Of a stretch of DNA of 46,767 nt, positions 180-24,040 are shown piece after piece. The notes under the pieces are model-generated. The model saw only the letters and a list, made by a program, of their open reading frames with translations, searched no databases and was not told the origin of the DNA. How positions within the stretch are numbered: the stretch's first letter is position 1; every line of letters begins with the position of its first letter. The translations under genes and the position numbers were made by a program. Origin of the DNA: Carboxylicivirga caseinilyticus (GTDB taxonomy: Bacteria; Bacteroidota; Bacteroidia; Bacteroidales; Marinilabiliaceae); contig JAFMVE010000048.1 of the NCBI GenBank assembly GCA_025499705.1, forward strand, positions 1 to 46,767, read 5' to 3'.

Positions 180-1055
180 ATGGGTAAAATAGCAACGAAC
201 ACAGATATTCAAATCAAAATCTTGACAAAAAGAGGAATGATTTTAGATTATGATGAATCGAAAATAAAAGAATTCCTATTAGATATTGGCTATTACAGGC
301 TTGGTTTTTACTGGAATCCTTTTGAAAAAGATGGAAACCATAACTTTGTTGAAAACACTAAATTCTCGGATGTTATTAAGTTGTATTATTTAGATGTCGA
401 TTTGAGGAATATCCTAAGCAAGTACCTAAATAGAATCGAAGTTAACTTCAGGACTAAGGTTGTATATTATGCATCTAATAAACACAAGGACTCCCCGACT
501 TGGTTTGCTGACCCAAGTATAGTAAATCGTGAGGTCATTGATAAAATTGGAGATTACTATCATGAGAATTTTATACGTAGTAATAAGCCAATAAAAAATC
601 ACCATAAGAAATATATAAACGATAAATATGCTCCTGCTTGGAAAACAATTGAGTTTTTTACTTTTGGAACAGTACTAAGTATTTTTCGCAATTTGAAAAA
701 CAATGAGATACAAGAGCGCATATCAAAAGAGTTTGGCATTTTAAACCTATCTAAATTTATTAACTTACTTGAGAAAGTAATTTTAGTTAGAAATATATGT
801 GCTCATGGTGGAATTCTTTTTGATATGCGAACACCTAAAGGTCTTTCGGTTCTTCCTGATATAACCTATAACAATAAAGATAGAAGCTCTTTAGATTCTT
901 GCATTAAAGTCATTTCATTTTTAATAAAGCAAATATCGGTTAATAGACATGAAGAATTAACAATGGAGATACGGGAACTATTTGAAAGTCACAAAGAAAA
1001 CGACCTATTAAAATCTATAATCGAGAATAAAATCAATTACGTATATGAAAAATAA
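180..1055 (+). CDS. Abi family (Abi_2, AbiD/AbiF-like) abortive infection protein
   Basis: The 291-residue protein matches the Abi_2 family, whose lactococcal members AbiD and AbiF stop phage growth by killing or arresting the infected cell. Seen in the sequence: an N-terminal GYYRLGFYWNPF segment (about residues 37-48), a charged middle with APAWKTIEFFTFGTVLSIF (about 156-174), and an RNICAHGG motif near residue 208. That motif resembles the R-N-x-C-A-H core of this HEPN-like family, in which R and H are thought to act in RNA cleavage; here the usual final H or N is G. The ATG start gives a length normal for the family. It stands alone, with a type I restriction operon converging on it and a candidate small RNA beginning two bases after its stop codon. 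Membership is well supported; that it defends against phage here is inference. Confidence 0.85.
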   Translation: MGKIATNTDIQIKILTKRGMILDYDESKIKEFLLDIGYYRLGFYWNPFEKDGNHNFVENTKFSDVIKLYYLDVDLRNILSKYLNRIEVNFRTKVVYYASNKHKDSPTWFADPSIVNREVIDKIGDYYHENFIRSNKPIKNHHKKYINDKYAPAWKTIEFFTFGTVLSIFRNLKNNEIQERISKEFGILNLSKFINLLEKVILVRNICAHGGILFDMRTPKGLSVLPDITYNNKDRSSLDSCIKVISFLIKQISVNRHEELTMEIRELFESHKENDLLKSIIENKINYVYEK

Positions 1056-1584: not shown

Positions 1585-4500
1585 TTAAATATCGGTTGAG
1601 AACATTTCTGCTAATGATTCTCCCTGTGCCAAAACTCTATCTGCTTCTAACTTTGCTAAATCTGGTGGATAGCCGTATCGCATCAATATTTTCTTTACAG
1701 TCAGTCGTAATTTTGCTTTTACGTCATCTCGCTTACTCCAATCAACCGTTGCATTTTTTCTAATGACATCTACAATTGTATGAATCAATTCTTTCATTTT
1801 AGCATCGTCTAAAAAGCTTGTTGATTCATTTTCATTCAAAACGCTATAAAAAGCATATTCCTCTGGAGTTAATCCAAGTTCATCAGATTTATGGTCTTCT
1901 AAACGCATTTCTTTTGCTATCTCAGATAGTTCCTGCAGGACTTGTGCTGAATCAATTTGATTGTTATGGTAACGTTTCACAACTGATTCTAACATTTCGG
2001 AAAAGCGTTTCCCTTGTACTAAGTTTTTTGTTTTTCTAACTCTAACTTCATCACTTAATAGCTTTTTAAGAAGTTCAAAAGCAACATTTTTTTGTTGCAT
2101 ATTTTTTACTTCTAACAAAAACTCATCAGATAGAATACTTACCGATGGACTTTCAATGCCTGCTGCTTCAAATATATCTATAACGCCATCACTTGACAGA
2201 GCGTTATCTACAATTTGCTTAATTGCTGTTTCTACTTCGTAATCTGATTTCACGCCACTGCCCGAAAACTTATTGATTCGCGCCTTTACGGCTTGGAAAA
2301 ATGCCACTTCATCTTTTATAGCTTCTGCGTCAGGACTTGGAATAGACATTGCAAAAAGCTTTGACAGCAATGTCACTTCTTTCAAATATCGTTCTTTCAG
2401 CTTAACGTCCGATAAAATAAAGTTTTGCGCACCTAATAAAACTTGCAGTTTTTCTGCTGTGCCAACTTTGAAATATGCTTTAAAATCAAAACCATTAAAC
2501 ATCTGTTCAATGATTTCAAACTTTTCATTCATGCCAGCAATAGCTTCTTTTATATCTACAATTGGTTCACCTTCGCCACCAGATTGTAAATATGTTGCCA
2601 TTGCATTCCTTAAGTCTTGACCAATACCAAAGTAATCAACAACTAAACCTCCTGGCTTATCTTTGTAAACTCTGTTTACACGAGCAATTGCTTGCATTAG
2701 ATTATGCCCTTGCATTTTTTTATCGACATACATTGTATGGGTGCTCGGAGCATCAAAACCCGTTAGCCACATATCACGAACAATAACTAATTTTAGTTCA
2801 TCATTCGTATCTTTCATTCGAGTGGCTAAATCTTTTCTTTGCTGTTTGGTTGTTTTATGGGGTTGAAATAATTCAGGGTCATCGGATGAGCTTGTCATAA
2901 CAACCTTAATCATTCCTTTATTTAAGTCATCATTGTGCCATTCTGGTCTTAAGTCTATAATTTCGTTATATAGTTTAACACAAATATTACGTGTCATTCC
3001 AACAACCATAGCCTTACCCTCAAAGACTTTTTGCCTTTCTTCAAAGTGCATCACAATATCTTTGGCTACGTCTTTTAATCTGTCTGGATGCCCAACCACA
3101 GCATCAATAGTTGCTGTTTTCTTCTTGGCTTTTTCTATTTGTTCTTCAGTTGCATCAGCAATGTCGTTTATTTCATCGTCTAATGCTTTTGCTGTTTGTT
3201 CGTCAAGTTTGATCTTTACAAGACGAGACTCATAACTAATTGGCACAGTTGCACCATCGTCAACGGCTTGTTTTATGTCGTACACATCAATATAATCACC
3301 AAAAACAGCAGGGGTTGATTTGTCTTCTTTTTCAATAGGTGTTCCCGTAAAACCTATGTAAGAGGCATTAGGTAAAGCATCACGTAAATATTTTGCATTA
3401 CCATATTTTATTTCTGACCCTATTACATTATTATTCTCATCTTTGACTTCGGATTCACGAGCTTTAAAACCATACTGACTGCGATGTGCTTCATCAGCAA
3501 CAACAACAATGTTGGTTCGTTCTGATAGCATTTGATAAACATTACCTTCGGCTGGAGCAAATTTTTGAATGGTTGAGAATATTACACCACCACCTGATAC
3601 TTTCAAAAGTTCTTTGATATGTTCCCTATTATTTGCCTGAACAGGTTTTTGACGTAAAAGCCCAACACAGTTTCCAAAAGTCCCGAAAAGTTGGTCGTCC
3701 AAATCATTTCTATCTGTTAACATCACAATAGTTGGATTTTCCATTTTCGGGTGAGTAATAATCTGCCCACTATAAAAAACCATTGAAAGAGATTTACCTG
3801 AACCTTGCGTATGCCAAATCACGCCAATTTTACGATCTCCATCTTGTGTATGCGTTGCTCTTAAAGTCTGCTCAACTGCTTTTTGAATAGCGTAATATTG
3901 ATGATAAGCTGCTACCTTTTTAATCTTAACCTGAGAAATAAGACCTGTTTTTTCATCTTTCTTTTCCTCTTGCTCAAATACGGTACAGTAGCGAATTAAC
4001 TCAACCAATGTTTTTTTATTGAGCATATATTCTGTTAGAATTTGCAATTCGGTTCTAACATCATGTTTAATTTCTTTTGGTGCCTTCCATGAAAGGTAAC
4101 GTGAAAAAGGAGCTGAAACACTCGATGTCGTTGCATCAATACCGTCTGAAATAATACAAATGGAATTGTAAAAGAAAATACTCGGAACAGCTTTTTTATA
4201 ATTCTGAATTTGCGTGTATGCTTTGCGTAATGTAGCTTTCTCGTCTGTGGCTGATTTAAGTTCAATAAAAACTAGGGGCAAGCCATTAATGAAAATAACA
4301 ACATCAAACCTCTTTTCGTTATTATTCTCTTTAACAACTAGTTGATTGACCACCCAAAAACTATTGTTTTCTGGATTTTCAACATCCAATAAGTTTACAT
4401 TTATCCCTTTAGTTTTTCCGTCTTTTGTATATTCTACTGTTACTCCACTTGTAAGTAATATATGGAAACGCTCATTGTTTTCCATTATATCTTCTGTCCC

Positions 4501-4737
4501 AAGATTAATTACTTTTTGATAAGCTTCAACTCTTGCAGATTCAGGGAGAGAAGGATTAAGCTTCTTAAGCGATTGTTTAAAATGTGACTCTAATATTACA
4601 GAAGCAAAATTCTCTCGTTGCGGATTATCACTATTTGGAGAAATATCCGTGCCATTAAAATACGTATACCCTTGACTAACTAACTGGTCAATTAAGGATT
4701 GTTCAATGGTATTTTCGTTTATTGTATTCATAGGCAT
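1585..4737 (-). CDS. hsdR: Type I restriction enzyme, R subunit (HsdR)
   Basis: This 1050-residue protein is the translocating and cleaving subunit of a type I restriction-modification complex. Visible parts: an N-terminal PD-(D/E)xK nuclease region with D145 and the ELK at 159-161; a Walker A QGSGKS at 311-316; a DEAH box at 415-418; a GFTGTP motif III near 462-467; and further SF2 helicase motifs, including a DAPSTHTMYVDK segment and an ARVNR motif. The C-terminal part is helical, as expected for docking on HsdM/HsdS. The first of two nearby ATG codons is preferred because AAAGGAGAA lies about 12 bases upstream. That start abuts the stop of the PIN gene without spacing, so the two are probably translationally coupled. 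It is the last gene of the hsdM-hsdS-PIN-hsdR operon and appears intact. Confidence 0.95.
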   Translation of the reverse strand: MPMNTINENTIEQSLIDQLVSQGYTYFNGTDISPNSDNPQRENFASVILESHFKQSLKKLNPSLPESARVEAYQKVINLGTEDIMENNERFHILLTSGVTVEYTKDGKTKGINVNLLDVENPENNSFWVVNQLVVKENNNEKRFDVVIFINGLPLVFIELKSATDEKATLRKAYTQIQNYKKAVPSIFFYNSICIISDGIDATTSSVSAPFSRYLSWKAPKEIKHDVRTELQILTEYMLNKKTLVELIRYCTVFEQEEKKDEKTGLISQVKIKKVAAYHQYYAIQKAVEQTLRATHTQDGDRKIGVIWHTQGSGKSLSMVFYSGQIITHPKMENPTIVMLTDRNDLDDQLFGTFGNCVGLLRQKPVQANNREHIKELLKVSGGGVIFSTIQKFAPAEGNVYQMLSERTNIVVVADEAHRSQYGFKARESEVKDENNNVIGSEIKYGNAKYLRDALPNASYIGFTGTPIEKEDKSTPAVFGDYIDVYDIKQAVDDGATVPISYESRLVKIKLDEQTAKALDDEINDIADATEEQIEKAKKKTATIDAVVGHPDRLKDVAKDIVMHFEERQKVFEGKAMVVGMTRNICVKLYNEIIDLRPEWHNDDLNKGMIKVVMTSSSDDPELFQPHKTTKQQRKDLATRMKDTNDELKLVIVRDMWLTGFDAPSTHTMYVDKKMQGHNLMQAIARVNRVYKDKPGGLVVDYFGIGQDLRNAMATYLQSGGEGEPIVDIKEAIAGMNEKFEIIEQMFNGFDFKAYFKVGTAEKLQVLLGAQNFILSDVKLKERYLKEVTLLSKLFAMSIPSPDAEAIKDEVAFFQAVKARINKFSGSGVKSDYEVETAIKQIVDNALSSDGVIDIFEAAGIESPSVSILSDEFLLEVKNMQQKNVAFELLKKLLSDEVRVRKTKNLVQGKRFSEMLESVVKRYHNNQIDSAQVLQELSEIAKEMRLEDHKSDELGLTPEEYAFYSVLNENESTSFLDDAKMKELIHTIVDVIRKNATVDWSKRDDVKAKLRLTVKKILMRYGYPPDLAKLEADRVLAQGESLAEMFSTDI

Positions 4738-5748
4738 TTATTCAAAATTCTCCTTTAAAAATTCAGCAACGGCATTTTCAACTATTTCACTTTTGGCTTT
4801 ATATAGTGTTCCAATAAATTCCTTTACATCAGCATCTTTAATAATCCATTTAATTTGCTCGTTTGAATAAGACGCGTTTAATATTTGATTAATTTCTTCG
4901 TTTGAAAGGTAGTTTATAAAAGGAGCTAGTTTTTCAATTGCATTATGAGTAATATAAAAGTTCTCTGAATTTATTAATTGTGTAATATAATCTATAAACT
5001 GCTCTCTTTCTGATGTACTAACAATCTCACCTGAATCGACTTCAATTATGTATTGCGTATTCTCAATTTCGATAAGAACATTTTGGTTGTCTTCAACATT
5101 ATGCCAATACTCAATAATATTTTCTTTTGAAATAATCACATCAAGTTCTTCATTTACTCTTTCAATAAAGTAATCATCAAAAAACTGAGAAACACTTTTT
5201 TGTTTAAACTCTTTGTAGTTTTCTATAACTACAATATTATGATGTTTATTAAGAGCTTCTTTTAATCTCAAATCTTTCGCACAAACAAATACATTTTTAT
5301 TAGGTATTTCTTGAAGATACTCTAACACTGAAAAGTAAATAAGGGCATCTTTAAATCCCTTGTCTGTATTTTCACCGCTTTCAAAAGGAGCTTGTTTATG
5401 GATTGCTAATTCTTTTATTTGAGGTAAGACATTATTATCCTTTAAGTCAATAATCTCAAAAGGTATGGATTCTTCATCCTGTAATTTTTGAATATAATTT
5501 TCAATTTCAAAGGATTTAGTATCTTCTTCGTTAACGCCTATGAGTTTATGAAAAGGATTATTCAAAAATTTATCTTTATTACTTTTTAAAGCACTTCTTT
5601 TTTGTCTTTTAATCTCCTGAACAACAACCTCTGGGATAACAACCTCTGCATCTTGTGTAAATTGTTCTAGCATTTCTCTGCTTCCGAGGAAGGTATTCAC
5701 CCCTGTATTTCTAGCAATATTGGTATCAAAGATTACTTTTTCTTTCAT
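4738..5748 (-). CDS. PIN-domain (DUF4935-like) nuclease inside the restriction operon
   Basis: The 336-residue protein begins with FDTN (D8), and a plausible PIN acidic set continues with E45, D134 (in GFKDALIYFS) and D159 (in VCAKDLRL). PIN domains are metal-dependent RNases, many of them toxins; the GFKDALI block resembles the DUF4935 group. Residues from about 200 to 336 form a separate, mostly helical and acidic region I do not recognise, perhaps for docking or regulation. The gene starts 3 bases after the hsdS stop and ends directly at the hsdR start, so it is clearly co-transcribed and tightly coupled. It is not a core part of type I systems. By analogy with PrrC and RloC, anticodon nucleases that ride in type I operons and act when restriction is disabled, it may be a second line of defence. 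That role is inference; the fold call is good. Confidence 0.75.
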   Translation of the reverse strand: MKEKVIFDTNIARNTGVNTFLGSREMLEQFTQDAEVVIPEVVVQEIKRQKRSALKSNKDKFLNNPFHKLIGVNEEDTKSFEIENYIQKLQDEESIPFEIIDLKDNNVLPQIKELAIHKQAPFESGENTDKGFKDALIYFSVLEYLQEIPNKNVFVCAKDLRLKEALNKHHNIVVIENYKEFKQKSVSQFFDDYFIERVNEELDVIISKENIIEYWHNVEDNQNVLIEIENTQYIIEVDSGEIVSTSEREQFIDYITQLINSENFYITHNAIEKLAPFINYLSNEEINQILNASYSNEQIKWIIKDADVKEFIGTLYKAKSEIVENAVAEFLKENFE

Positions 5749-5751
5749 ACA

Positions 5752-7011
5752 TTATTCTTTAAAATCATTAACTCTAATCTCTCCGTTCAATAACTTGGGT
5801 AATAAAGTGTCTCTTGTTTTAGAAAGATTAATGATAGCTTCATTATTTGCCGAGATTTTACTTGTTGTCGAATCTGCTAAATCAGAAAATTTTTTTATCA
5901 ATTTAAAATCAGAGGGCAAAAATATCTGATATTCAGGGATTGCCTTTTTTGATAAGTGAAGAACTGTAGTTCCATTTGCATAACCTATACAATGTCCTTT
6001 AAAAGCTCTATTCTTCATTAGATAATAAAGGAATGAAGAAGTCATGTCTTTATGCTCAGATACAACTTTTACCAAATCCATTGTTATATACATTTTGTCA
6101 AAACCTGCATTATCAAAAATGAATGCTGGGTTTCCTAACACCTCTGCATCCTGTGTTAAATCAGTATGAGCAACAACTAAATCCCCTTTTTGTACTTCTT
6201 GTTCTGGTTTAGGGGTTCCTTTAAATGGCTTAAAACCTCTGGATTGAAAGTCTCCGTTTCTTCCAAAATTCTTAAGAGTTACTAATGCTTCATTGCTTTC
6301 ATCAACTAGTTCCTTCCCTTTGTAAGAGTAGCCATTTACAGTCTTAACTAATTCATGCATTTTATAAACTCTCCAACCATCAGGCATTTTATCTCCAACT
6401 TGGAATTTTCCAAACCATTCTTTAAAAATAGTTTGAGCAGTCTGCTCTAAAGTGTTGTTTTGAGCCTGTAGATTTTCAATTTTATCATCTAAGGAGTTTA
6501 TTATCTGCATTATAGATTCTTGCTCAGCTAAGGAAGGTAGGTTAATCATTAGTTTACGCACAGCCTCTTTGGTTATAGTTTTTGTAACTGAACCTAATGC
6601 AAAACTCTTTACATACTTTTCATTAGTCTTTAGGTAATAATAAACATATTTAGGGACTGCTTTTTCTTTATTAATTCTAAGTAAGAACAAATTCATAGCT
6701 AATGAAATAGGCTTTTCAATTTTTGGCGTATAATACACAGAACCTGCATTTGCTATTTTATTCATTATCAAATCATCTCTTTGAACTTTAGATTTTGAAA
6801 GAAAATTATAAGCCTCTTCTGTTATGTATTTATTATTATTTACAAAATCATTTTGCTCAAAATTTGTGGTTCTAATCATTAAAGCATATTCCTCAGAATC
6901 AAAAAGCTGAACATTCTCTTTTAGTTTCTTGTATGCTCCATTAGCATGATAGTCAGTAAGTAAAACCAATAATTCAGATAGGGCAACAGATTTCCAATTT
7001 AAATTATTCAT
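5752..7011 (-). CDS. hsdS: Type I restriction-modification specificity subunit (HsdS)
   Basis: The 419-residue protein has the two-half layout of HsdS: a first target recognition domain (about 1-160), a central helix beginning LAEQESIMQIINSLDDKI (161-178), a second recognition domain (about 210-368) and a C-terminal helix (about 370-405). Each recognition domain reads half of a split DNA target; the helices set their spacing and bind HsdM. The start codon overlaps the hsdM stop (ATGA, 4 bases), typical of hsdMS pairs. Both halves look intact, so an active specificity subunit is expected. The recognised sequence cannot be told from the protein. I saw no inverted-repeat partner hsdS copies in the window, so shuffling of specificity is not indicated. 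Confidence 0.95.
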   Translation of the reverse strand: MNNLNWKSVALSELLVLLTDYHANGAYKKLKENVQLFDSEEYALMIRTTNFEQNDFVNNNKYITEEAYNFLSKSKVQRDDLIMNKIANAGSVYYTPKIEKPISLAMNLFLLRINKEKAVPKYVYYYLKTNEKYVKSFALGSVTKTITKEAVRKLMINLPSLAEQESIMQIINSLDDKIENLQAQNNTLEQTAQTIFKEWFGKFQVGDKMPDGWRVYKMHELVKTVNGYSYKGKELVDESNEALVTLKNFGRNGDFQSRGFKPFKGTPKPEQEVQKGDLVVAHTDLTQDAEVLGNPAFIFDNAGFDKMYITMDLVKVVSEHKDMTSSFLYYLMKNRAFKGHCIGYANGTTVLHLSKKAIPEYQIFLPSDFKLIKKFSDLADSTTSKISANNEAIINLSKTRDTLLPKLLNGEIRVNDFKE

Positions 7012-8561
7012 AGTGTAATACCGATTTTATCTAATTGAGAAGTGATTTCCTTATTTAACTCTTCCTCTTTCTCCATTTGTTTTTTCAATGTAGATGTTAA
7101 GCTTTTAATTTTATCATTGAATGATATACCATCATCTTCTTCATCTGGCATTCCCACATATCTAACTGGTGTCAATATGTATGCATGTTTCTGCAATTCT
7201 TCTTGGGTTGTAGATTTGCAAAAACCTTTTATATCAGCATAGTTTTCATTTTTTCGCCAATTGTGGTAGGTTTCAGCAATTTTTTGAATATCTCCCCATC
7301 CATTTTCGTAAAAGTCTCCTTGCTTTTCTTCATCATCGGCATCTGACAACTTTCTGTGAACACGGTCTTCCATGTAACCCATTTCCGAAGCGTCAATAAA
7401 TAAAACTTGTTTACTATGACTGTTCTTTTCTCTACGAAGTAACCATATACAAGCAGGAATGCCTGTATTATAGAATAACTGCTTAGGCAAAGCAACAATA
7501 CATTCAACTAAATCATTTTCAACTAAGTTTCTTCTAATATCACTTTCTCCTGAAGCATTCGAGCTTAAAGAACCATTCGCTAAAACTGTTGCCATTACAC
7601 CTCTTGGAGATAAATGATATAACATATGCTGAATCCATCCAAAATTAGCATTTCCATTTGGAGGAGTTCCATATTTCCATCGACCGTCATCCTGCAAAAT
7701 ATCAACACCCCATTCTTTTTGGTTAAAAGGTGGATTGGCCAAAATATAGTCGGCTTTTAGGTCAGGATGAGCATCTTTTAAGAAAGAACCTTCAGTGTTC
7801 CATGCGACAAATTTTGAGTTGATATTTCGAATAGCAAGGTTCATTTTAGAAAGTTTCCAAGTGGTTTGGTTACTTTCTTGTCCATACACAGTAATATCTT
7901 TAATGCTTCGTCCATGAGCAGTTACAAACTTTTCACTCATAACAAACATTCCTCCGCTACCACTTGCAGGGTCATAAACTCTACCTTTGTATGGCTCTAT
8001 CATTTCCACCATTAGCTTTACTATAGCTTTTGGCGTATAGAACTGTCCTCCCTTTTTACCTTCCGCATTGGCAAATTCCCCTAAGAAATACTCGTAAACT
8101 CTCCCAAAGAGGTCTTTTGAGTTTTTATTCTCGACTTGCAACTCAGTATTTGAAATCAAATCAATGAGTTCACCCAAAGATGTTTTATCCAAGTTGGCTT
8201 TGCCATAAACCTGTGGAAGTACATTTTTAAGCTCTTTATTTTCCTTTTCTATGGCTTCCATTGCTTCATCAATGGATTGTCCAATCGTTGGCAGTTTTGC
8301 TTGAGAATGAATATGACTCCACCGGGCGCCTTTGGGTACAAAAAATACGTTTTCCGCTATGTATTCGTCTCTATCTTCTGGGTCACTCCATTCATCAGCT
8401 TCTAGTTTGTGGTATAACTCCGAGAAGGATTCTGAAATGTATTTAAGAAATACTAACCCTAAAACAACGTGTTTGTATTCCGCAGCGTCAATGTTCTTTC
8501 TGAGTTTATCGGCTGCTTTAAAAAGTTTCTGTTCGAAACTCCCATTATCTTTCTTTGCCAT
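7008..8561 (-). CDS. hsdM: Type I restriction-modification DNA methyltransferase (HsdM)
   Basis: The 517-residue N6-adenine methyltransferase has an N-terminal HsdM helical domain (about 8-140), FYTP at 174-177, the SAM-binding motif I DPASGSGG at 197-204, and the catalytic NPPF at 276-279. Length and motifs are standard for the family. It is first in the operon, so host protection is made before HsdR, and it overlaps hsdS by 4 bases. Upstream, ACACTT (8588-8593) and AAGTGT (8600-8605) form an inverted repeat that could be an operator or a 5' UTR hairpin. No control (C) protein gene is visible. Confidence 0.96.
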   Translation of the reverse strand: MAKKDNGSFEQKLFKAADKLRKNIDAAEYKHVVLGLVFLKYISESFSELYHKLEADEWSDPEDRDEYIAENVFFVPKGARWSHIHSQAKLPTIGQSIDEAMEAIEKENKELKNVLPQVYGKANLDKTSLGELIDLISNTELQVENKNSKDLFGRVYEYFLGEFANAEGKKGGQFYTPKAIVKLMVEMIEPYKGRVYDPASGSGGMFVMSEKFVTAHGRSIKDITVYGQESNQTTWKLSKMNLAIRNINSKFVAWNTEGSFLKDAHPDLKADYILANPPFNQKEWGVDILQDDGRWKYGTPPNGNANFGWIQHMLYHLSPRGVMATVLANGSLSSNASGESDIRRNLVENDLVECIVALPKQLFYNTGIPACIWLLRREKNSHSKQVLFIDASEMGYMEDRVHRKLSDADDEEKQGDFYENGWGDIQKIAETYHNWRKNENYADIKGFCKSTTQEELQKHAYILTPVRYVGMPDEEDDGISFNDKIKSLTSTLKKQMEKEEELNKEITSQLDKIGITL

Positions 8562-19639: not shown

Positions 19640-21820
19640 TTATGTGAATTCAACCTTTATTTCTTCAAAAGCTTGCTTGTAGTATGTACTTGTGCCTAAT
19701 AATTCCTCATGTGATCCTCTATTCGTGATAGTGTTATTTTCGATTATTATAATATTGTCAGAGTGTCTGGCTAATTGTGGACGATGCGTAACAAATAATA
19801 TTATCATGTCTTGTTTGAGATTATTCAATAAATCGATAACAAATTGTTCAGCTTTCCGACCCATAGCTGCTGTTGCTTCATCCAATAATAGTACCTTTGG
19901 TTTGGAATAAAGGGCTCGGGCCAATGCAATTAATTGCCGCTGTCCACCTGATATATTTGTTGCGTTCTCATTAATAATGGTTGCATAGCCCTGTTGTAGA
20001 TCATTAAAGAATTTATCAAATCCATGGTTATTACAGAAATGCTCCATCTGTTTATAATCTGGAGTTTCAGATAAAGTAATGTTTTCGAATAGCGTATTAT
20101 TGAATAGCTTCACATGTTGTTCAACAACTGCGACATGTTTCCGCCAATGATTCGTTTTAAAACAGTTCCAATCTTCTCCGTTAACTAAAATATCTCCTGA
20201 TTCAATTTTATGAAAGCGTTGAAGAATAGAAAGTAAGGTACTTTTACCACAACCAATTTCTCCCAAAAGACTAGTAAACTGTCCCTTTTTTAGCTTTAAG
20301 TCAATATTTTTTAGTAATAATGATTTACCAGGAAAACGAAAGTTAAGTTTATCAATACTAATTTTTTGTATGCTTATAGGATTATTTGCGATTTCTAAAT
20401 CATCTTTTAGGTATTCAGGTTCTGTGTTTGCATACTCATACATACGTTCAAAAGCGATACGTGCTTCCTGTAGTTGTATATTGGCTAACGCAATTCTTAT
20501 AACGGCGGCAGTCATACTTCCGCATAAACTGATAATGGCCATTAATTGTCCTACTAAAAGCTGTGTGCTTAATACCAAATGTGCCGCCCAAGCTATAACA
20601 CCAACCATTAGTAAAGTGTTAATTGCTTCAACCCACCAGTTAAGTTTAGCACTTAATACTCCTAATTGATAAACACCTTCCATAAAAATTCGATAGATTG
20701 CATTTACCGACCTTCCTAATAGGCTTTCAAGGTTATTGGTTTTGATGGTGTCAATGTTATTAAATGTATCGATATATTTGCTTTCAGTTACAGCATAACT
20801 TTTCATAACAGCTTGTTGCCCTCTGATTACGTTTCTGTTAAATCGCCACGCAATTAAACCAAAAAGAGGAATGGTCAATAAACTAATAAAACCGGTAGAG
20901 GTTGAATATACAAAGATGTATGAAATCGAAGCAATTGCAACTAATATATCTATCAATAATTCACTACTTAAATAAATTACCACGCGCTGAATTCGGCGAG
21001 CATCGTTTAATCGTGCCACCATATCGCCAGTTGAGATGCTGTTAAAAAAGCTTTTAGGCAAGTACAGTAATTTGCCAAAAAAAGATGTTACCAAACGTGT
21101 ATTCATATCACGCCCTTGTCGTTGTAGAAAAATATTACGGATGTAACCGATTGTTGCATGCGCAATTAGAATTAAGCCAAAAACAATTAAGCCAAAAATA
21201 AGACTACGGATATCTTTAGCTGGCAGAATCACATCAATCAGCTTTTGTGAAAAGATTGCGGTTGCCAAACCTAATATTGAGATTCCAATCCCTAAAAATG
21301 CAGCAATTGCCAATATGGGATAATCGTCTTTAAGTAGTTGTAAAAACCAGGTTCGTTGATGGATTTTGTTCTTTTTCTTAGTGATAAATCCTTCACCTGG
21401 CTTCATTTTTAATAATGCACCACTTTTCCATATTTCTTGTAACTCAATTTGAGAATATTCAAGTATACCCAGGCTAGGATCACCGATTATAAACTTATTA
21501 TTGACATAGGTATAACAGACAACAAAATGCTGACGATTATTGTCCATAATAACATGTAAGATAACCGGTACTGTTTGCTCTTTTAATGCTGACATATCAG
21601 CATTAAAACCTTTGACTTCAAAATTTAGCTTTTGAGCTGACTGGTATAAACCAAGTAGCGAGGTGCCATTCAAAGTGGTTCCACTACTTTCTCGTAGTTT
21701 TTCTTGTGAGATATCACCACCATAATATTTGACAATGGAGGATAAACAGGCTAGACCACAATAATACTGACTATGCTGTTTTGTAAATGTACGTTTTATA
21801 TGTTTGAAGTTGGGCTGCAT
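19640..21820 (-). CDS. Peptidase-containing ABC transporter (C39 bacteriocin exporter)
   Basis: The 726-residue protein combines a C39 peptidase (1-135), a six-helix ABC membrane domain (about 165-450) and an ATPase (about 482-720). In the peptidase, Q15, C21, H98 and D114 fit the papain-like active site that cuts after a double glycine. In the ATPase, Walker A is GEIGCGKS (520-527), the signature SGGQ is at 624-627, Walker B LLLDE ends at 648 and the switch His is H679. The D-loop is AAMG (651-654), where SALD or a similar motif ending in D is usual. It would remove the leader of the LNGG precursor encoded upstream in the same direction and export the peptide. In Gram-negative cells such exporters need an HlyD-like adaptor and a TolC-like channel; neither gene is here. 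It is last in the cluster, 18 bases after the thioredoxin-like gene. Confidence 0.92.
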   Translation of the reverse strand: MQPNFKHIKRTFTKQHSQYYCGLACLSSIVKYYGGDISQEKLRESSGTTLNGTSLLGLYQSAQKLNFEVKGFNADMSALKEQTVPVILHVIMDNNRQHFVVCYTYVNNKFIIGDPSLGILEYSQIELQEIWKSGALLKMKPGEGFITKKKNKIHQRTWFLQLLKDDYPILAIAAFLGIGISILGLATAIFSQKLIDVILPAKDIRSLIFGLIVFGLILIAHATIGYIRNIFLQRQGRDMNTRLVTSFFGKLLYLPKSFFNSISTGDMVARLNDARRIQRVVIYLSSELLIDILVAIASISYIFVYSTSTGFISLLTIPLFGLIAWRFNRNVIRGQQAVMKSYAVTESKYIDTFNNIDTIKTNNLESLLGRSVNAIYRIFMEGVYQLGVLSAKLNWWVEAINTLLMVGVIAWAAHLVLSTQLLVGQLMAIISLCGSMTAAVIRIALANIQLQEARIAFERMYEYANTEPEYLKDDLEIANNPISIQKISIDKLNFRFPGKSLLLKNIDLKLKKGQFTSLLGEIGCGKSTLLSILQRFHKIESGDILVNGEDWNCFKTNHWRKHVAVVEQHVKLFNNTLFENITLSETPDYKQMEHFCNNHGFDKFFNDLQQGYATIINENATNISGGQRQLIALARALYSKPKVLLLDEATAAMGRKAEQFVIDLLNNLKQDMIILFVTHRPQLARHSDNIIIIENNTITNRGSHEELLGTSTYYKQAFEEIKVEFT

Positions 21821-21838
21821 TCGGGTTGGTTTAATTTA

Positions 21839-22354
21839 TTAATGTAATGAAGATAAAATTGCTTCAGGTTTGGTTTCGCCCAGATATTTATTCTGCAGTT
21901 GCCGATTTCGATCGTAGATAAAAACTGATGGGAATATTGAGGTTCCGAAAAATTTATAAAACGCATCATTTTTATCCATCAATATGTCTATTGCTTCTAA
22001 ATCCCATAACTGATATTGTTTTACAAATTGATTAAGCCTGGAGAGGGAGTCATCATTTGTAATCATAATTATTTGAGTATTGACAAATGCTTCTTTATTT
22101 AAACGTAATGCCTGTGCCTCGTACTGACAATGCTCACATTCAGGATGAAAGTATATGACTACCATCGGCAAACCGTTATAATCGTGTAAACATACATCCT
22201 CATTATTAAGATTAGTAAACTGTCCGTTAGGTAAGATCTGTATATGGGTTTCAATTTCTTTCTTAGCCATATAGCTAGCTGTTATCTGAAAAACTCCATA
22301 ACTTATTACTAATATTAGGAAGAGGAATATAATTCGTTTAATAATGTACTTCAT
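21839..22354 (-). CDS. Membrane-anchored thioredoxin-like protein
   Basis: The 171-residue protein has an N-terminal membrane anchor (about 7-27) and a thioredoxin/redoxin-like domain with the redox pair C73-E-H-C76 in HPECEHCQYEA and a cis-proline candidate P142 in SIFPSVFIYD. The domain should face the periplasm, like TlpA or ResA relatives. It starts one base after the stop of the upstream membrane protein and precedes the exporter, so it belongs to the same unit. The precursor peptide of the cluster has two cysteines in its mature part, so forming or reducing that disulfide is a reasonable guess. A further cysteine (C55) lies before the domain core. The family is clear; the substrate is inference. 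Confidence 0.82.
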   Translation of the reverse strand: MKYIIKRIIFLFLILVISYGVFQITASYMAKKEIETHIQILPNGQFTNLNNEDVCLHDYNGLPMVVIYFHPECEHCQYEAQALRLNKEAFVNTQIIMITNDDSLSRLNQFVKQYQLWDLEAIDILMDKNDAFYKFFGTSIFPSVFIYDRNRQLQNKYLGETKPEAILSSLH

Positions 22355-22355
22355 A

Positions 22356-23036
22356 CTATGCCATATTTAAACTAACAAACATGACTAATAGTACCCAAAT
22401 TATAAGTCCACTACCGTATGATGATACTACCAATTGTAGCGATTTACCATATTTTATTGGCTGCAGATGTTTTGATTCTTTAATCGCAATTACTAACAAT
22501 GAAGCCAAAACTAAAAAGTAAACTAATTCAAATACATTGAGCAGGCTTAAGGGATAAATAAATACAGGATCTACAGTATTGTATTCAAATAAGGACATGA
22601 TTGAAAGTGGGGTGTATTGTAAATCCTGGAGATTGGAAACATTTTTAAAAAGTACCAGTTTAGCAAGTTTCACTACTCCCGATATGATATAAATAAAATC
22701 GGCAATAAGGGCTACTTTAAAATGTTTGCTAAAGTCAATTTTTATTTCAGAAAAATAGGTGCCAATGTAAAGGAATATTGAAGTGAAGAATATCCTAAAT
22801 AGAAGCAAGAGTGGAATTAATAAAAAACTAATCCAACCATACTTTTTATTCATTAAAAAAATTGATTCAATTCTTCCTGAAGATAACTGTTCTGAAAATG
22901 TATTGAAGTAAATCTGTTCATTAATTAATAAATAGTCAGTAGCCAGCTTTAGAGTAAATGTGAATAGGACAATAATAGAATAAATTATCCAAGAATTTAA
23001 GCTCCAAAATTCTTGAATGATCCTGTTATTACTCAT
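22356..23036 (-). CDS. Unrecognised multi-pass membrane protein of the bacteriocin-like cluster
   Basis: The 226-residue protein has about five or six membrane helices (near 14-38, 66-95 which may be two, 108-130, 158-187, 199-224) and no signal peptide. There is no catalytic motif that I recognise. The spacing of helices loosely recalls Yip1-type proteins, but I would not assign it. It starts 41 bases after the stop of the 119-residue membrane protein and ends one base before the thioredoxin-like gene, so it is part of the export/immunity unit. Possible roles are immunity, precursor docking or export help; none can be chosen from sequence. Confidence 0.7.
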   Translation of the reverse strand: MSNNRIIQEFWSLNSWIIYSIIVLFTFTLKLATDYLLINEQIYFNTFSEQLSSGRIESIFLMNKKYGWISFLLIPLLLLFRIFFTSIFLYIGTYFSEIKIDFSKHFKVALIADFIYIISGVVKLAKLVLFKNVSNLQDLQYTPLSIMSLFEYNTVDPVFIYPLSLLNVFELVYFLVLASLLVIAIKESKHLQPIKYGKSLQLVVSSYGSGLIIWVLLVMFVSLNMA

Positions 23037-23077
23037 TTTTGTAAAATCATTGATTCATAAATAATCTCTATTGGAAT

Positions 23078-23437
23078 CTATAACTCTTTAGGCTGTATGT
23101 TTTTTCTATTCTTATATAGAAGTACAGTGCCTAAAATAATATTTAAAGAAATAACAGATATGATGACGGTTATTTGTGAATTAACAAAGAAAGCTATAAA
23201 AGATGAACCAATTAATGTGCAAGAAAATAATATAATAAGATCTGATTTAAATTTTTTTATATTAATAATCGTCATTTTTTCTCTAATGGCAGCACCTATT
23301 ATCCATCCTATTGTACAACCAATCCATGCCATTGTTATTGATATATATGTTTTATTCCCATGAAGATAAGCCCCTATGAATAATGTTAAAAATATCAATA
23401 ATAAGAAAATGGATTTTTGAATAAATTTAGTTTTCAT
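23078..23437 (-). CDS. Small four-helix membrane protein, possible immunity protein
   Basis: The 119-residue protein is almost entirely membrane helices (about 7-25, 30-50, 65-85, 88-107) with basic ends. It has no motif I recognise. It is the first gene after the precursor gene, separated from it by 162 bases that include a strong hairpin. Small hydrophobic proteins directly after a bacteriocin precursor are often immunity proteins that protect the producer, so that is the leading guess, but position is the only evidence. Confidence 0.65.
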   Translation of the reverse strand: MKTKFIQKSIFLLLIFLTLFIGAYLHGNKTYISITMAWIGCTIGWIIGAAIREKMTIINIKKFKSDLIILFSCTLIGSSFIAFFVNSQITVIISVISLNIILGTVLLYKNRKNIQPKEL

Positions 23438-23548
23438 GTCTTCAATTTTTTATTATTCACTTTCTCTTAATTTTATAAAATTCAAGAGAAATAATAAGTA
23501 ATATTGCTAATTGTTGATACCATAATAATTAACGCGTAAGAAATGTTG

Positions 23549-23593
23549 ATAACTTAATCGAGATATTGATTAATAATACCTCGATTAAGTTAT
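23549..23593 (-). promoter_or_regulatory. Intra-operon hairpin after the precursor gene
   Basis: ATAACTTAATCGAG (23549-23562) and CTCGATTAAGTTAT (23580-23593) form a perfect 14-bp stem with a 17-base loop, starting 6 bases after the precursor stop codon. No T-run follows on the minus strand, so it looks more like an attenuator or mRNA 3'-end stabiliser than a full terminator. It could give more precursor than exporter mRNA. Confidence 0.6.
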
Positions 23594-23599
23594 TAGTTT

Positions 23600-23791
23600 T
23601 CATGCATCTTTGCATACATAGGCTGTTAAACCACTCCATGCAAAACCAACAACAGCAGCACCTATACCTCCTGTAGCTACTCCAGCCATAGCTGACCAGA
23701 AAATACCAACTGCTGCCATACCTAAATTACATGAATAATAACTTTCTCCACCATTCAGGTTTTCCATCTGTTCAAAATTTAGTTCTTTCAT
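23600..23791 (-). CDS. Double-glycine leader bacteriocin-like precursor peptide
   Basis: The 63-residue product has a 15-residue leader ending LNGG, with L at -12, M at -7, L at -4 and GG at -2/-1. This matches the pattern cut by C39 peptidases, one of which is encoded downstream in the same cluster. The predicted mature peptide is 48 residues. It is hydrophobic and rich in Gly and Ala (for example GVATGGIGAAVVG), with cysteines at mature positions 6 and 45 and a cationic residue only near the end. Small-xxx-small spacings recall membrane-inserting class II bacteriocins. Only one precursor is seen, so a two-peptide bacteriocin is not indicated. Activity as an antibacterial or as a signal peptide is inference; being a C39 substrate is well supported. 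Confidence 0.82.
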   Translation of the reverse strand: MKELNFEQMENLNGGESYYSCNLGMAAVGIFWSAMAGVATGGIGAAVVGFAWSGLTAYVCKDA

Positions 23792-23900
23792 GATTAAAAG
23801 TATTTAGTTAATATTGTAATGACAGGATAAATTAACTACATACTTACTATAGTTTCAATTATTAGGAATGAAAAAAACGTGAGCGTTAAGGAATTGATAT

Positions 23901-23934
23901 TGAGTGTAATGTATTGTACTCTGAGTGTATTGTA
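23901..23934. repeat. Paired direct repeats upstream of the precursor gene
   Basis: TGAGTGTA occurs at 23901-23908 and 23922-23929 (21 bases, two helical turns apart), and TGTATTGTA at 23910-23918 and 23926-23934. They lie 110-140 bases before the precursor start codon, upstream of a weak promoter candidate (TTG near 23856-23858 and TAATTTAT at 23827-23834, minus strand). Two-turn direct repeats are typical activator sites, for example of LytTR regulators, but no regulator gene is in the cluster. Confidence 0.35.
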
Positions 23935-23993: not shown

Positions 23994-24017
23994 AAAAAAA
24001 GGGGCTCGAAAGCCCCC
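23994..24017 (-). terminator. Intrinsic terminator of the rplM-rpsI-rpsB-tsf genes
   Basis: On the minus strand GGGGCT-TTCG-AGCCCC forms a hairpin with a stable TTCG loop, followed by TTTTTTT. It closes the ribosomal operon before the bacteriocin-like cluster begins. Confidence 0.93.
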
Positions 24018-24040
24018 TTTTATATATGCGAATTTATTTC

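What the first reader, a model, noticed from the sequence alone, without database searches (positions are those of the whole stretch)
19640..23791. Compact single-peptide bacteriocin-like cluster with its own thioredoxin-like protein
Five same-strand genes encode a 63-residue LNGG precursor, two small membrane proteins, a membrane-anchored CxxC protein and a C39-peptidase ABC exporter. The 48-residue mature peptide is glycine/alanine rich and has two cysteines near its ends, so the CxxC protein may set a ring-closing disulfide. Two membrane proteins have no recognised family and no HlyD adaptor is encoded, which is unusual for a Gram-negative exporter of this type. The system may be a new type of peptide antibiotic or signal.
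Basis: partly seen in the sequence, partly recalled or inferred. Interest (0 to 1): 0.76.

Follow-up and report, generated by a model that had tools for sequence, protein, structure and literature searches.

The report
Disulfide peptide-bacteriocin cassette in marine Bacteroidota
A recently acquired five-gene cassette probably makes, staples with a disulfide, exports and protects against a small membrane-active antibacterial peptide; it is a variant of the known bacteroidetocin systems rather than a wholly new kind of antibiotic.

Summary
In detail: five tightly packed minus-strand genes (23791 to 19640) encode a 63-aa LNGG precursor, 119-aa and 226-aa membrane proteins, an anchored thioredoxin-like CEHC protein and a complete C39-peptidase ABC exporter. 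Four of the five match the published bacteroidetocin (class IIf; Coyne 2019) gene set: GG peptide, 5-TM protein, thiol oxidoreductase, C39 exporter. Missing HlyD is usual here: of 109 surveyed C39-exporter loci, 45 of 50 with TM/thioredoxin genes have no HlyD hit; in a tree of 90 of them these exporters form one branch (SH-aLRT 99). Their precursors carry at least two cysteines (49 of 52, against 1 of 12 at HlyD-type loci). The genome gave no DsbB or VKOR hit. Different from described bacteroidetocins: the mature peptide is hydrophobic and Gly/Ala-rich (weakly predicted helical hairpin), and a fast-evolving 4-TM protein follows it. Membrane partners follow many precursors of this subtype, so it is a candidate immunity protein, which bacteroidetocins reportedly lack. 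The cassette sits between tsf and pyrH, adjacent in three congeners; another congener carries it elsewhere with a like 21-bp-period repeat array upstream.

The parts
23600..23791 (-). 63-aa precursor: 15-aa GG leader + 48-aa mature peptide, Cys at mature 6 and 45, Gly/Ala 38%
   Evidence: below-cut-off Pfam Bacteriocin_IIc match 20.8 bits; AF2 mean pLDDT 73, two mature helices 16-40 and 43-60
23078..23437 (-). 119-aa, 4-TM protein right behind the precursor; candidate immunity protein
   Evidence: 39% id, fastest evolving of the five; TM; membrane partners behind precursors in related clusters
22356..23036 (-). 226-aa, 5-TM protein (M226), likely counterpart of the bacteroidetocin 5-TM protein; no cysteine
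   Evidence: relatives; co-occurrence; AF2 pLDDT 92.6; no PDB match; no Cys
21839..22354 (-). 171-aa membrane-anchored thioredoxin-like protein (TLP), CEHC active site
   Evidence: AhpC-TSA 48 bits, Thioredoxin_2 27 bits; C73 and C76 invariant in 4 and 7 rows; ResA and other thioredoxin-like chains
19640..21820 (-). 726-aa C39 peptidase-containing ABC exporter
   Evidence: full-length match to the PDB bacteriocin transporter 8vp3/4ry2, E about 1e-97; motifs; tree
23871..23929 (-). three direct repeats (TACACTCA, TACACTCA, AACGCTCA) at exact 21-bp period plus TTAACGCTCACGTTTTTTT; possible activator-binding array
23549..23593 (-). strong hairpin between precursor and the export genes (19-nt arms)
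   Evidence: -23.9 kcal/mol for 23530-23605, z -7.2; L040 folds to a different hairpin at the same place (z -4.8) although the repeat finder lists none there
23994..24021 (-). inverted repeat + T run behind tsf (terminator-like), separating the cassette from tsf
   Evidence: sequence itself; no terminator scan was run

Best explanation
A self-contained bacteriocin cassette of the bacteroidetocin (class IIf) layout. The exporter's C39 domain cuts the precursor after LNGG and the ABC part moves the 48-aa peptide across the inner membrane. The anchored thioredoxin-like protein joins Cys6 and Cys45 in the periplasm, holding the ends of a hydrophobic Gly/Ala-rich helical hairpin together; the 226-aa 5-TM protein is needed for production (export or hand-over), not for immunity. 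The released peptide acts on the inner membrane of related bacteria, and the 119-aa 4-TM protein protects the producer. Expression may be switched on by a regulator that binds the 21-bp-period repeats. Shown here: gene set, conservation, selection, insertion between tsf and pyrH, co-occurrence across many Bacteroidota, cysteine association. Supported by published tests on a counterpart: roles of exporter, TM protein and oxidoreductase. Inferred: disulfide, target, immunity, regulation.
For: Published counterpart: the four-gene set, deletion attenuating activity for the peptide, TM and oxidoreductase genes, neither TM nor oxidoreductase protecting, and four genes sufficing in E. coli (PMC6671954). 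Here: same five genes in a congener with dN below dS; 226-aa relatives next to GG peptides, oxidoreductases and C39 exporters; a Bacteroidaceae-like genome with TM gene - 60-aa 4-Cys peptide with 15-aa GG leader - oxidoreductase - exporter, the published order. TM/TLP-type exporters are one side of a branch, SH-aLRT 99, 38 rows against 52. Of 109 exporter loci 53 have an HlyD hit and 50 a TM and/or TLP gene; only 5 have both; in the family set of 60 loci drawn by the C39 domain alone, 1 of 6 TM/TLP-type against 43 of 54 others have an HlyD hit. Precursors with at least 2 Cys: 49 of 52 against 1 of 12. No DsbB or VKOR hit in the own genome. Next non-core gene with at least 2 TM: 24 of 38 hydrophobic peptides against 2 of 21 others (rule set; first rule 14 of 38 against 1 of 21). 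One precursor and its 107-aa partner occur as a 542/548-nt identical unit with different neighbours in two genomes.
Against: No peptide, disulfide, killing or protection has been measured. Published Bd-A/B are described as having 12-13 hydrophobic of 42 residues and being somewhat basic, Bd-A acts on the outer-membrane protein BamA and producers inhibit themselves, so function may not carry over. The peptide hairpin model is weak (pLDDT 73, pTM 0.47), and a GG within 5 residues of the midpoint between the cysteines is found in only 9 of 23 two-Cys hydrophobic peptides. The 119-aa protein has a relative in only one other cluster of the survey, L040. The partner in the L085/L089 unit has no predicted TM, and 14 of 38 hydrophobic peptides have no such membrane neighbour. 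Five TM/TLP-type loci have an HlyD relative near by. Three of 52 peptides at these loci have fewer than two Cys, and 5 of the 50 loci, L053-L055, L058 and L063, have the TM gene but no TLP hit.
Confidence: 0.7

Rival explanations
1. A secreted signal rather than a weapon: the 48-aa peptide is sensed by a two-component system and the 21-bp repeats are its autoinduction site.
For: Repeat array with 21-bp period upstream in both carriers; 24 LytTR-domain matches in the genome, a family recalled to bind such spaced repeats.
Against: No sensor kinase or regulator among the five genes, and none of the 24 LytTR matches lies on the window's contig; 48 largely hydrophobic residues with terminal cysteines is unlike most sensed peptides (recalled); the published counterpart kills; a 4-TM partner is not needed for a signal.
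Confidence: 0.13
2. A true bacteroidetocin acting on the outer membrane (BamA) like Bd-A, with the 119-aa protein an accessory rather than an immunity protein.
For: Same four core genes, leader length 15, mature length 48 within the published 42-53 range, at least 2 Cys; no immunity protein in the described systems.
Against: Peptide is hydrophobic and acidic (pI 4.4, GRAVY 0.88) whereas Bd-A/B are described as somewhat basic; a membrane partner tracks hydrophobic precursors and in L131 follows the precursor at the far end of the operon.
Confidence: 0.2
3. The oxidoreductase acts as a reductant or as a helper of the exporter, not as a disulfide maker.
For: Its Pfam, NCBIfam and PDB relatives are ResA/thioredoxin-like, many of which reduce their clients (recalled).
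Against: Cysteine content of precursors follows the TM/TLP type of locus; no DsbB or VKOR detected; published peptides ran differently reduced and non-reduced, consistent with disulfides.
Confidence: 0.12
4. A decaying or silent cassette.
For: The 226-aa gene and the upstream motif were each found in only 2 of 14 genus genomes.
Against: All five ORFs intact; dN/dS about 0.11 for the precursor and lower than that for three others.
Confidence: 0.05

Closest known systems
Bacteroidetocins, class IIf bacteriocins (Coyne 2019, PMC6671954; BamA target PMC8546649)
   Same: GG leader of 15 aa, mature length within 42-53, at least two cysteines, 5-TM protein + thiol oxidoreductase + C39 ABC exporter in a region described with four genes and no adaptor, Bacteroidota
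   Different: Hydrophobic Gly/Ala-rich acidic peptide with 2 terminal Cys instead of the 4 of Bd-A/B; precursor first instead of TM gene first; extra 4-TM protein behind the precursor (no immunity protein described); repeat array upstream; target unknown
Class II microcins such as microcin V with CvaB/CvaA/TolC
   Same: GG leader, C39 ABC exporter, Gram-negative, hydrophobic Gly-rich peptide with cysteines, small membrane immunity protein (recalled)
   Different: No HlyD-type adaptor in the cassette; dedicated oxidoreductase and 5-TM protein instead; Pfam MccV match only 16.2 bits, cut-off 27
Gram-positive class II bacteriocins with PCAT exporters (e.g. carnobacteriocin B2 precursor, PCAT1)
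   Same: GG leader and C39 exporter; exporter matches the solved bacteriocin transporter 8vp3/4ry2 over its length; precursor weakly resembles carnobacteriocin B2, E 0.37
   Different: No YGNGV motif; TM protein and thiol oxidoreductase are said not to be typical of class IIa regions (PMC6671954)

Membership tests
Bacteroidetocin (class IIf) | GG leader of 15-16 aa | tested here: met
   15-aa leader MKELNFEQMENLNGG
Bacteroidetocin (class IIf) | mature peptide 42-53 aa with at least two cysteines | tested here: met
   48 aa, 2 Cys; range from PMC6671954 and PMC8546649
Bacteroidetocin (class IIf) | 5-TM protein in the region | tested here: met
   226-aa protein, 5 hydrophobic segments; a profile that includes it and not L056 finds the TM gene of the bacteroidetocin-ordered locus L056 (E 1.6e-17). 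Direct comparison with the published TM gene was not possible
Bacteroidetocin (class IIf) | thiol oxidoreductase gene | tested here: met
Bacteroidetocin (class IIf) | C39 peptidase ABC transporter | tested here: met
Bacteroidetocin (class IIf) | peptide related by sequence to bacteroidetocin A/B (directly or by iterated tblastn) | tested here: inconclusive
   A/B sequences are not in the text I could read and I found no named A/B genome; only gene order and features of L056 stand in
Bacteroidetocin (class IIf) | kills Bacteroidales through BamA, producer not immune | not testable with these tools
   needs the peptide
Class II microcin with HlyD/TolC type I export | HlyD-type adaptor with the exporter | tested here: not met
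   no HlyD hit in the cassette or within 3.5 kb; exporter lies on the TM/TLP side of the branch that holds no HlyD-only row
Class IIa bacteriocin | YGNGV motif in the mature peptide | tested here: not met
   absent from the 48-aa sequence
DsbB/VKOR-type quinone oxidant (for the 226-aa protein) | conserved cysteine pairs in a multi-TM protein | tested here: not met
   no cysteine in the 226-aa protein

The most novel reading that the evidence does not exclude
Bacteroidota hold a separate peptide-export lineage, built of a C39 ABC exporter, an unfamiliar 5-TM protein and a dedicated oxidoreductase in place of the HlyD adaptor, that releases disulfide-closed peptides; one broad subtype, represented here, makes inner-membrane-active helical hairpins each paired with its own membrane immunity protein, carried as exchangeable peptide-immunity units on moving cassettes with their own switch. 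The 5-TM protein would be a new kind of export component with a fold not matched in the PDB.
Probability: 0.4. Interest if true: 0.7.

Novelty: new variant of a known kind. Interest (0 to 1): 0.52.

Why it matters
It turns an observation made on bacteroidetocins into a testable rule for many Bacteroidota: exporters that travel with the 5-TM and thioredoxin-like genes carry cysteine-paired peptides and mostly do without HlyD. It also offers candidate immunity proteins for such systems, and a small, recently moved cassette in which disulfide making, export and immunity can be separated gene by gene. How such peptides cross the outer membrane without an adaptor remains open.

Tried and rejected
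Rejected: 'new type of antibiotic system' (gene set is published for bacteroidetocins); 'HlyD missing is unusual' (45 of 50 loci of this type); '226-aa protein as immunity' (published test on the counterpart negative; and it accompanies very different peptides); '226-aa protein as DsbB-like oxidant' (no cysteine); class IIa and HlyD-type membership (see table).

Led nowhere: Foldseek of the 226-aa model against the PDB gave 25 matches, none below E 2.2 and no TM-score above 0.26; profile search of the PDB gave none; two housekeeping relatives touch Pfam Yip1 below cut-off (20.1 and 21.3 bits against 28.6), a lead only. A GG near the midpoint of the cysteine loop is not general (9 of 23). The 21-bp array was looked for upstream of 13 other clusters; in none did fewer than 8% of shuffles reach it (only 142 bases were available in L079). 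Literature; no listed paper joins this genus with bacteriocins (0 papers), and the only paper with all terms is Coyne 2019; I saw none that describes the 119-aa type of partner, but titles, abstract starts and passages are all I saw of most, and papers outside the library were not searched. Besides the two bacteroidetocin papers I saw passages of PMC10352776 and PMC11195462, which gave no sequence to compare.
Full report
What is there. The five ORFs are exactly as described, all on the minus strand, with 162, 41, 1 and 18 bases between them. The exporter has C39, ABC membrane and ABC ATPase domains over their Pfam cut-offs, the motifs CGLAC, HFVV, GDPS, GEIGCGKST, SGGQRQ and LLLDEA (their roles recalled), and matches the solved bacteriocin transporter 8vp3/4ry2 over residues 11-716. 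The 171-aa protein is ResA/thioredoxin-like with one N-terminal hydrophobic segment and a CEHC pair. The 226-aa protein has five hydrophobic segments and no cysteine; the 119-aa protein has four; neither has a family in Pfam or NCBIfam above cut-off. The precursor gives only sub-threshold Pfam matches (Bacteriocin_IIc 20.8 bits, cut-off 27.1; MccV 16.2, cut-off 27).

Host. The window lies in a 5.65-Mb genome.

A second copy and selection. G018 has the same five genes in the same order. Identities: precursor 77%, 119-aa 39%, 226-aa 63%, oxidoreductase 67%, exporter 72%; dN/dS 0.15/1.37, 0.61/1.25, 0.26/5.1, 0.22/2.9, 0.19/6.0 (dS saturated for the last three, so only the direction is safe). Both cysteines are kept. 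The precursor is the best kept and the 119-aa protein the fastest changing.

Recent arrival. In 3 of 13 congeners (G019, G008, G007) tsf and pyrH are neighbours with 146-171 bases between them; in the window the cassette lies between these two genes. In the other 10 no tsf was found in the 1.5-kb flanks fetched, some cut by contig ends, so their arrangement is open. In G018 the cassette has other neighbours and pyrH lies about 30 kb away on the same contig. The 226-aa gene was found in 2 of 14 genus genomes, own included. The 16-mer TTAACGCTCACGTTTT is found in 2 of 14, once each, both times just upstream of the precursor: the control region travelled with the genes.

Control region. Upstream of the precursor the window has TACACTCA, TACACTCA, AACGCTCA at an exact 21-base period; L040 has ACGCTTA three times then ACGCTCA, same period, both ending in TTAACGCTCACGTTTTTTT. 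Lag 21 was the best of lags 15-30 in both, reached by 0 of 500 first-order random sequences each; 13 other clusters showed nothing of the kind. A 21-base period of short direct repeats is what I recall for LytTR-type activators of Gram-positive bacteriocin operons; the genome has 24 LytTR matches, none on the window's contig. That link is inference. Behind the precursor stop both copies can fold into a strong RNA hairpin, of different sequence (z -7.2 and -4.8; the repeat finder lists an inverted repeat only in the window), which could keep precursor messages more abundant than exporter messages.

What it matches. The bacteroidetocin paper (PMC6671954; sections 7 and 14 read, other passages seen) describes regions of four genes: an unknown protein with five TM segments, a GG peptide, a thiol oxidoreductase and a C39-type ABC transporter. 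Deleting the peptide, TM or oxidoreductase gene attenuated activity and was complemented; neither TM protein nor oxidoreductase protected a sensitive strain; four genes sufficed in E. coli BL21; producers inhibited themselves. Further putative members from four classes have 15-16 aa leaders and at least two cysteines; most, not all, regions have the oxidoreductase. A later paper gives mature lengths of 42-53 and BamA as the target (PMC8546649; title, start of abstract and passages). The window meets each structural feature. I could not compare with A/B sequences themselves. As a stand-in, an alignment of 226-aa relatives that did not include it found L029 (enlarged as L056) in a genome of a family in which two other members carry a Bacteroides-Prevotella 16S probe site (probe recalled); there the order is TM gene, 60-aa peptide with 15-aa GG leader and four cysteines, oxidoreductase, exporter, the published order.

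Breadth. Relatives of the 226-aa protein: 6 of 71 family genomes; 20 of 395 class genomes (some of them housekeeping relatives without peptide genes); 20 of 393 order genomes, two of them weak matches with stops; 4 of 399 genomes of the Bacteroidaceae-like family, one of them a weak match with a stop. Of 24 named loci brought in by the thioredoxin-like alignment, 22 show a 226-aa-type match; they include Draconibacterium, Prolixibacteraceae, Flavobacteriales, Cloacibacterium and Marinilabiliaceae MAGs. Two Flammeovirga plasmids have it too.

Two kinds of exporter locus. Among 109 distinct C39-containing exporter ORFs, 50 had a 226-aa-type and/or oxidoreductase gene within 3.5 kb on the same strand (48 the former, 45 the latter), 53 had an HlyD-type hit, 5 had both and 11 neither. 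In those five Pfam confirms adaptor-type domains; in L091 the neighbour is a MacB-type permease, and L091 also has a second, stronger 146-aa HlyD hit that was not scanned, so 'MacA-like, belonging to another exporter' is a guess for them. Contig ends may hide genes. Most TM/TLP loci were collected because of those genes; in the set drawn by the C39 domain alone (60 of the 66 places) 43 had HlyD only, 5 TM/TLP only, 1 both, 11 neither. In a tree of the 90 exporters of at least 640 aa, the 38 TM/TLP-type rows are one side of a branch with SH-aLRT 99 (quick method); some rows have long branches.

Cysteines. Using one rule for GG precursors in both sets, 49 of 52 peptides of TM/TLP-type loci and 1 of 12 of HlyD-only loci have two or more cysteines (Fisher p 5.6e-9); by locus 31 of 32 against 1 of 11. 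The single HlyD-type case looks like a chance ORF. Relatedness of loci is not corrected for. With no DsbB (controls rang in 6 of 14) or VKOR match (3 of 14) in the own genome, the cassette's oxidoreductase is the only dedicated disulfide candidate that I looked at; other families were not searched. What reoxidises it is unknown.

Peptide and partner. The precursor model shows two mature helices, 16-40 and 43-60, with Cys21 and Cys60 (precursor numbering) towards the two outer ends, at modest confidence (pLDDT 73, pTM 0.47). In many clusters with hydrophobic peptides a small membrane protein, or a multi-TM permease with an ATPase (DUF5687 in the two permeases scanned), follows the precursor: L083 (95, 98, 158 aa), L089 (141, 107, 77 aa), L128 (61, 63 aa), and L131, where precursor and a 92-aa 3-TM protein sit together at the far end of the operon. 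By the first rule set (longest next gene, at most 165 aa with at least 2 TM) 14 of 38 hydrophobic and 1 of 21 other peptides had such a partner, p 0.011; by a rule changed afterwards (nearest non-core gene, at least 2 TM, any size) 24 of 38 and 2 of 21, p 8e-5. L085 and L089 share one precursor (64/64) and its 107-aa partner (104/107) as a 542/548-nt unit among different neighbours, as expected of a toxin-immunity pair, although that partner has no predicted TM. Against: the relative of the L083 95-aa protein in L087 lies behind another ORF, not directly behind a precursor.

The 226-aa protein. AlphaFold2 gives a confident helical model (pLDDT 92.6, pTM 0.85) with no PDB counterpart by Foldseek or profile. 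It is kept with peptides that share little but leader and cysteines, so it serves the common pathway rather than one peptide.

Verdict. A new variant of the bacteroidetocin kind of bacteriocin cassette: known core, different peptide class, a candidate immunity protein, its own upstream array, recent transfer. Steps inferred and untested: the bond, killing, target, immunity and regulation.

Noticed in passing
L053 5848-7212, L054 6122-7483, L055 6410-7849: Relatives of the 226-aa protein beside a C39 protein of 453-479 aa, in L053 and L055 also beside a two-Cys peptide; the one scanned (L053) has no ABC ATPase domain and an RteC gene next to it, so maturation without, or with a distant, ATPase.
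   Followed up: partly
L051, L057, L059-L062, L064, L065: Relatives of the 226-aa protein in peptide-free contexts; neighbours scanned in L051, L057 and L059 are a TMEM260-like protein or TPR proteins; the relatives in L060 and L064 touch Pfam Yip1 below cut-off.
   Followed up: partly
L058 8816-9085 and many other exporter loci: A small protein family recurs beside C39 exporter loci of both kinds; its one scanned member touches Pfam HTH_11 below cut-off, so it may be a shared regulator.
   Followed up: no
L045 5403-6806: A run of six short cysteine-rich GG precursor ORFs (five by the rule) in front of one 226-aa/oxidoreductase/exporter set.
   Followed up: no
L146 5512-7418: Four similar 61-63-aa mature peptides with CxxC near both ends around one 226-aa gene.
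   Followed up: no
L058 6600-7484, L063 8066-9007: Two clusters with polar, four-Cys KFWG peptides have a ~300-aa CarboxypepD_reg-like protein behind the peptides (below cut-off in L058, above in L063); L044 and L137 have unscanned genes of like size, and the Flammeovirga plasmid loci annotated GLPGLI proteins.
   Followed up: partly
window 180-1055 and 1585-8561: Abi_2 protein and a type I restriction system (HsdR, S, M) with a PIN-domain gene between S and R.
   Followed up: no
L067 6032-10279 and L068 5369-9317: The own genome has two further C39 exporters, both with an HlyD-type gene next to them, near small GG ORFs without cysteines.
   Followed up: partly
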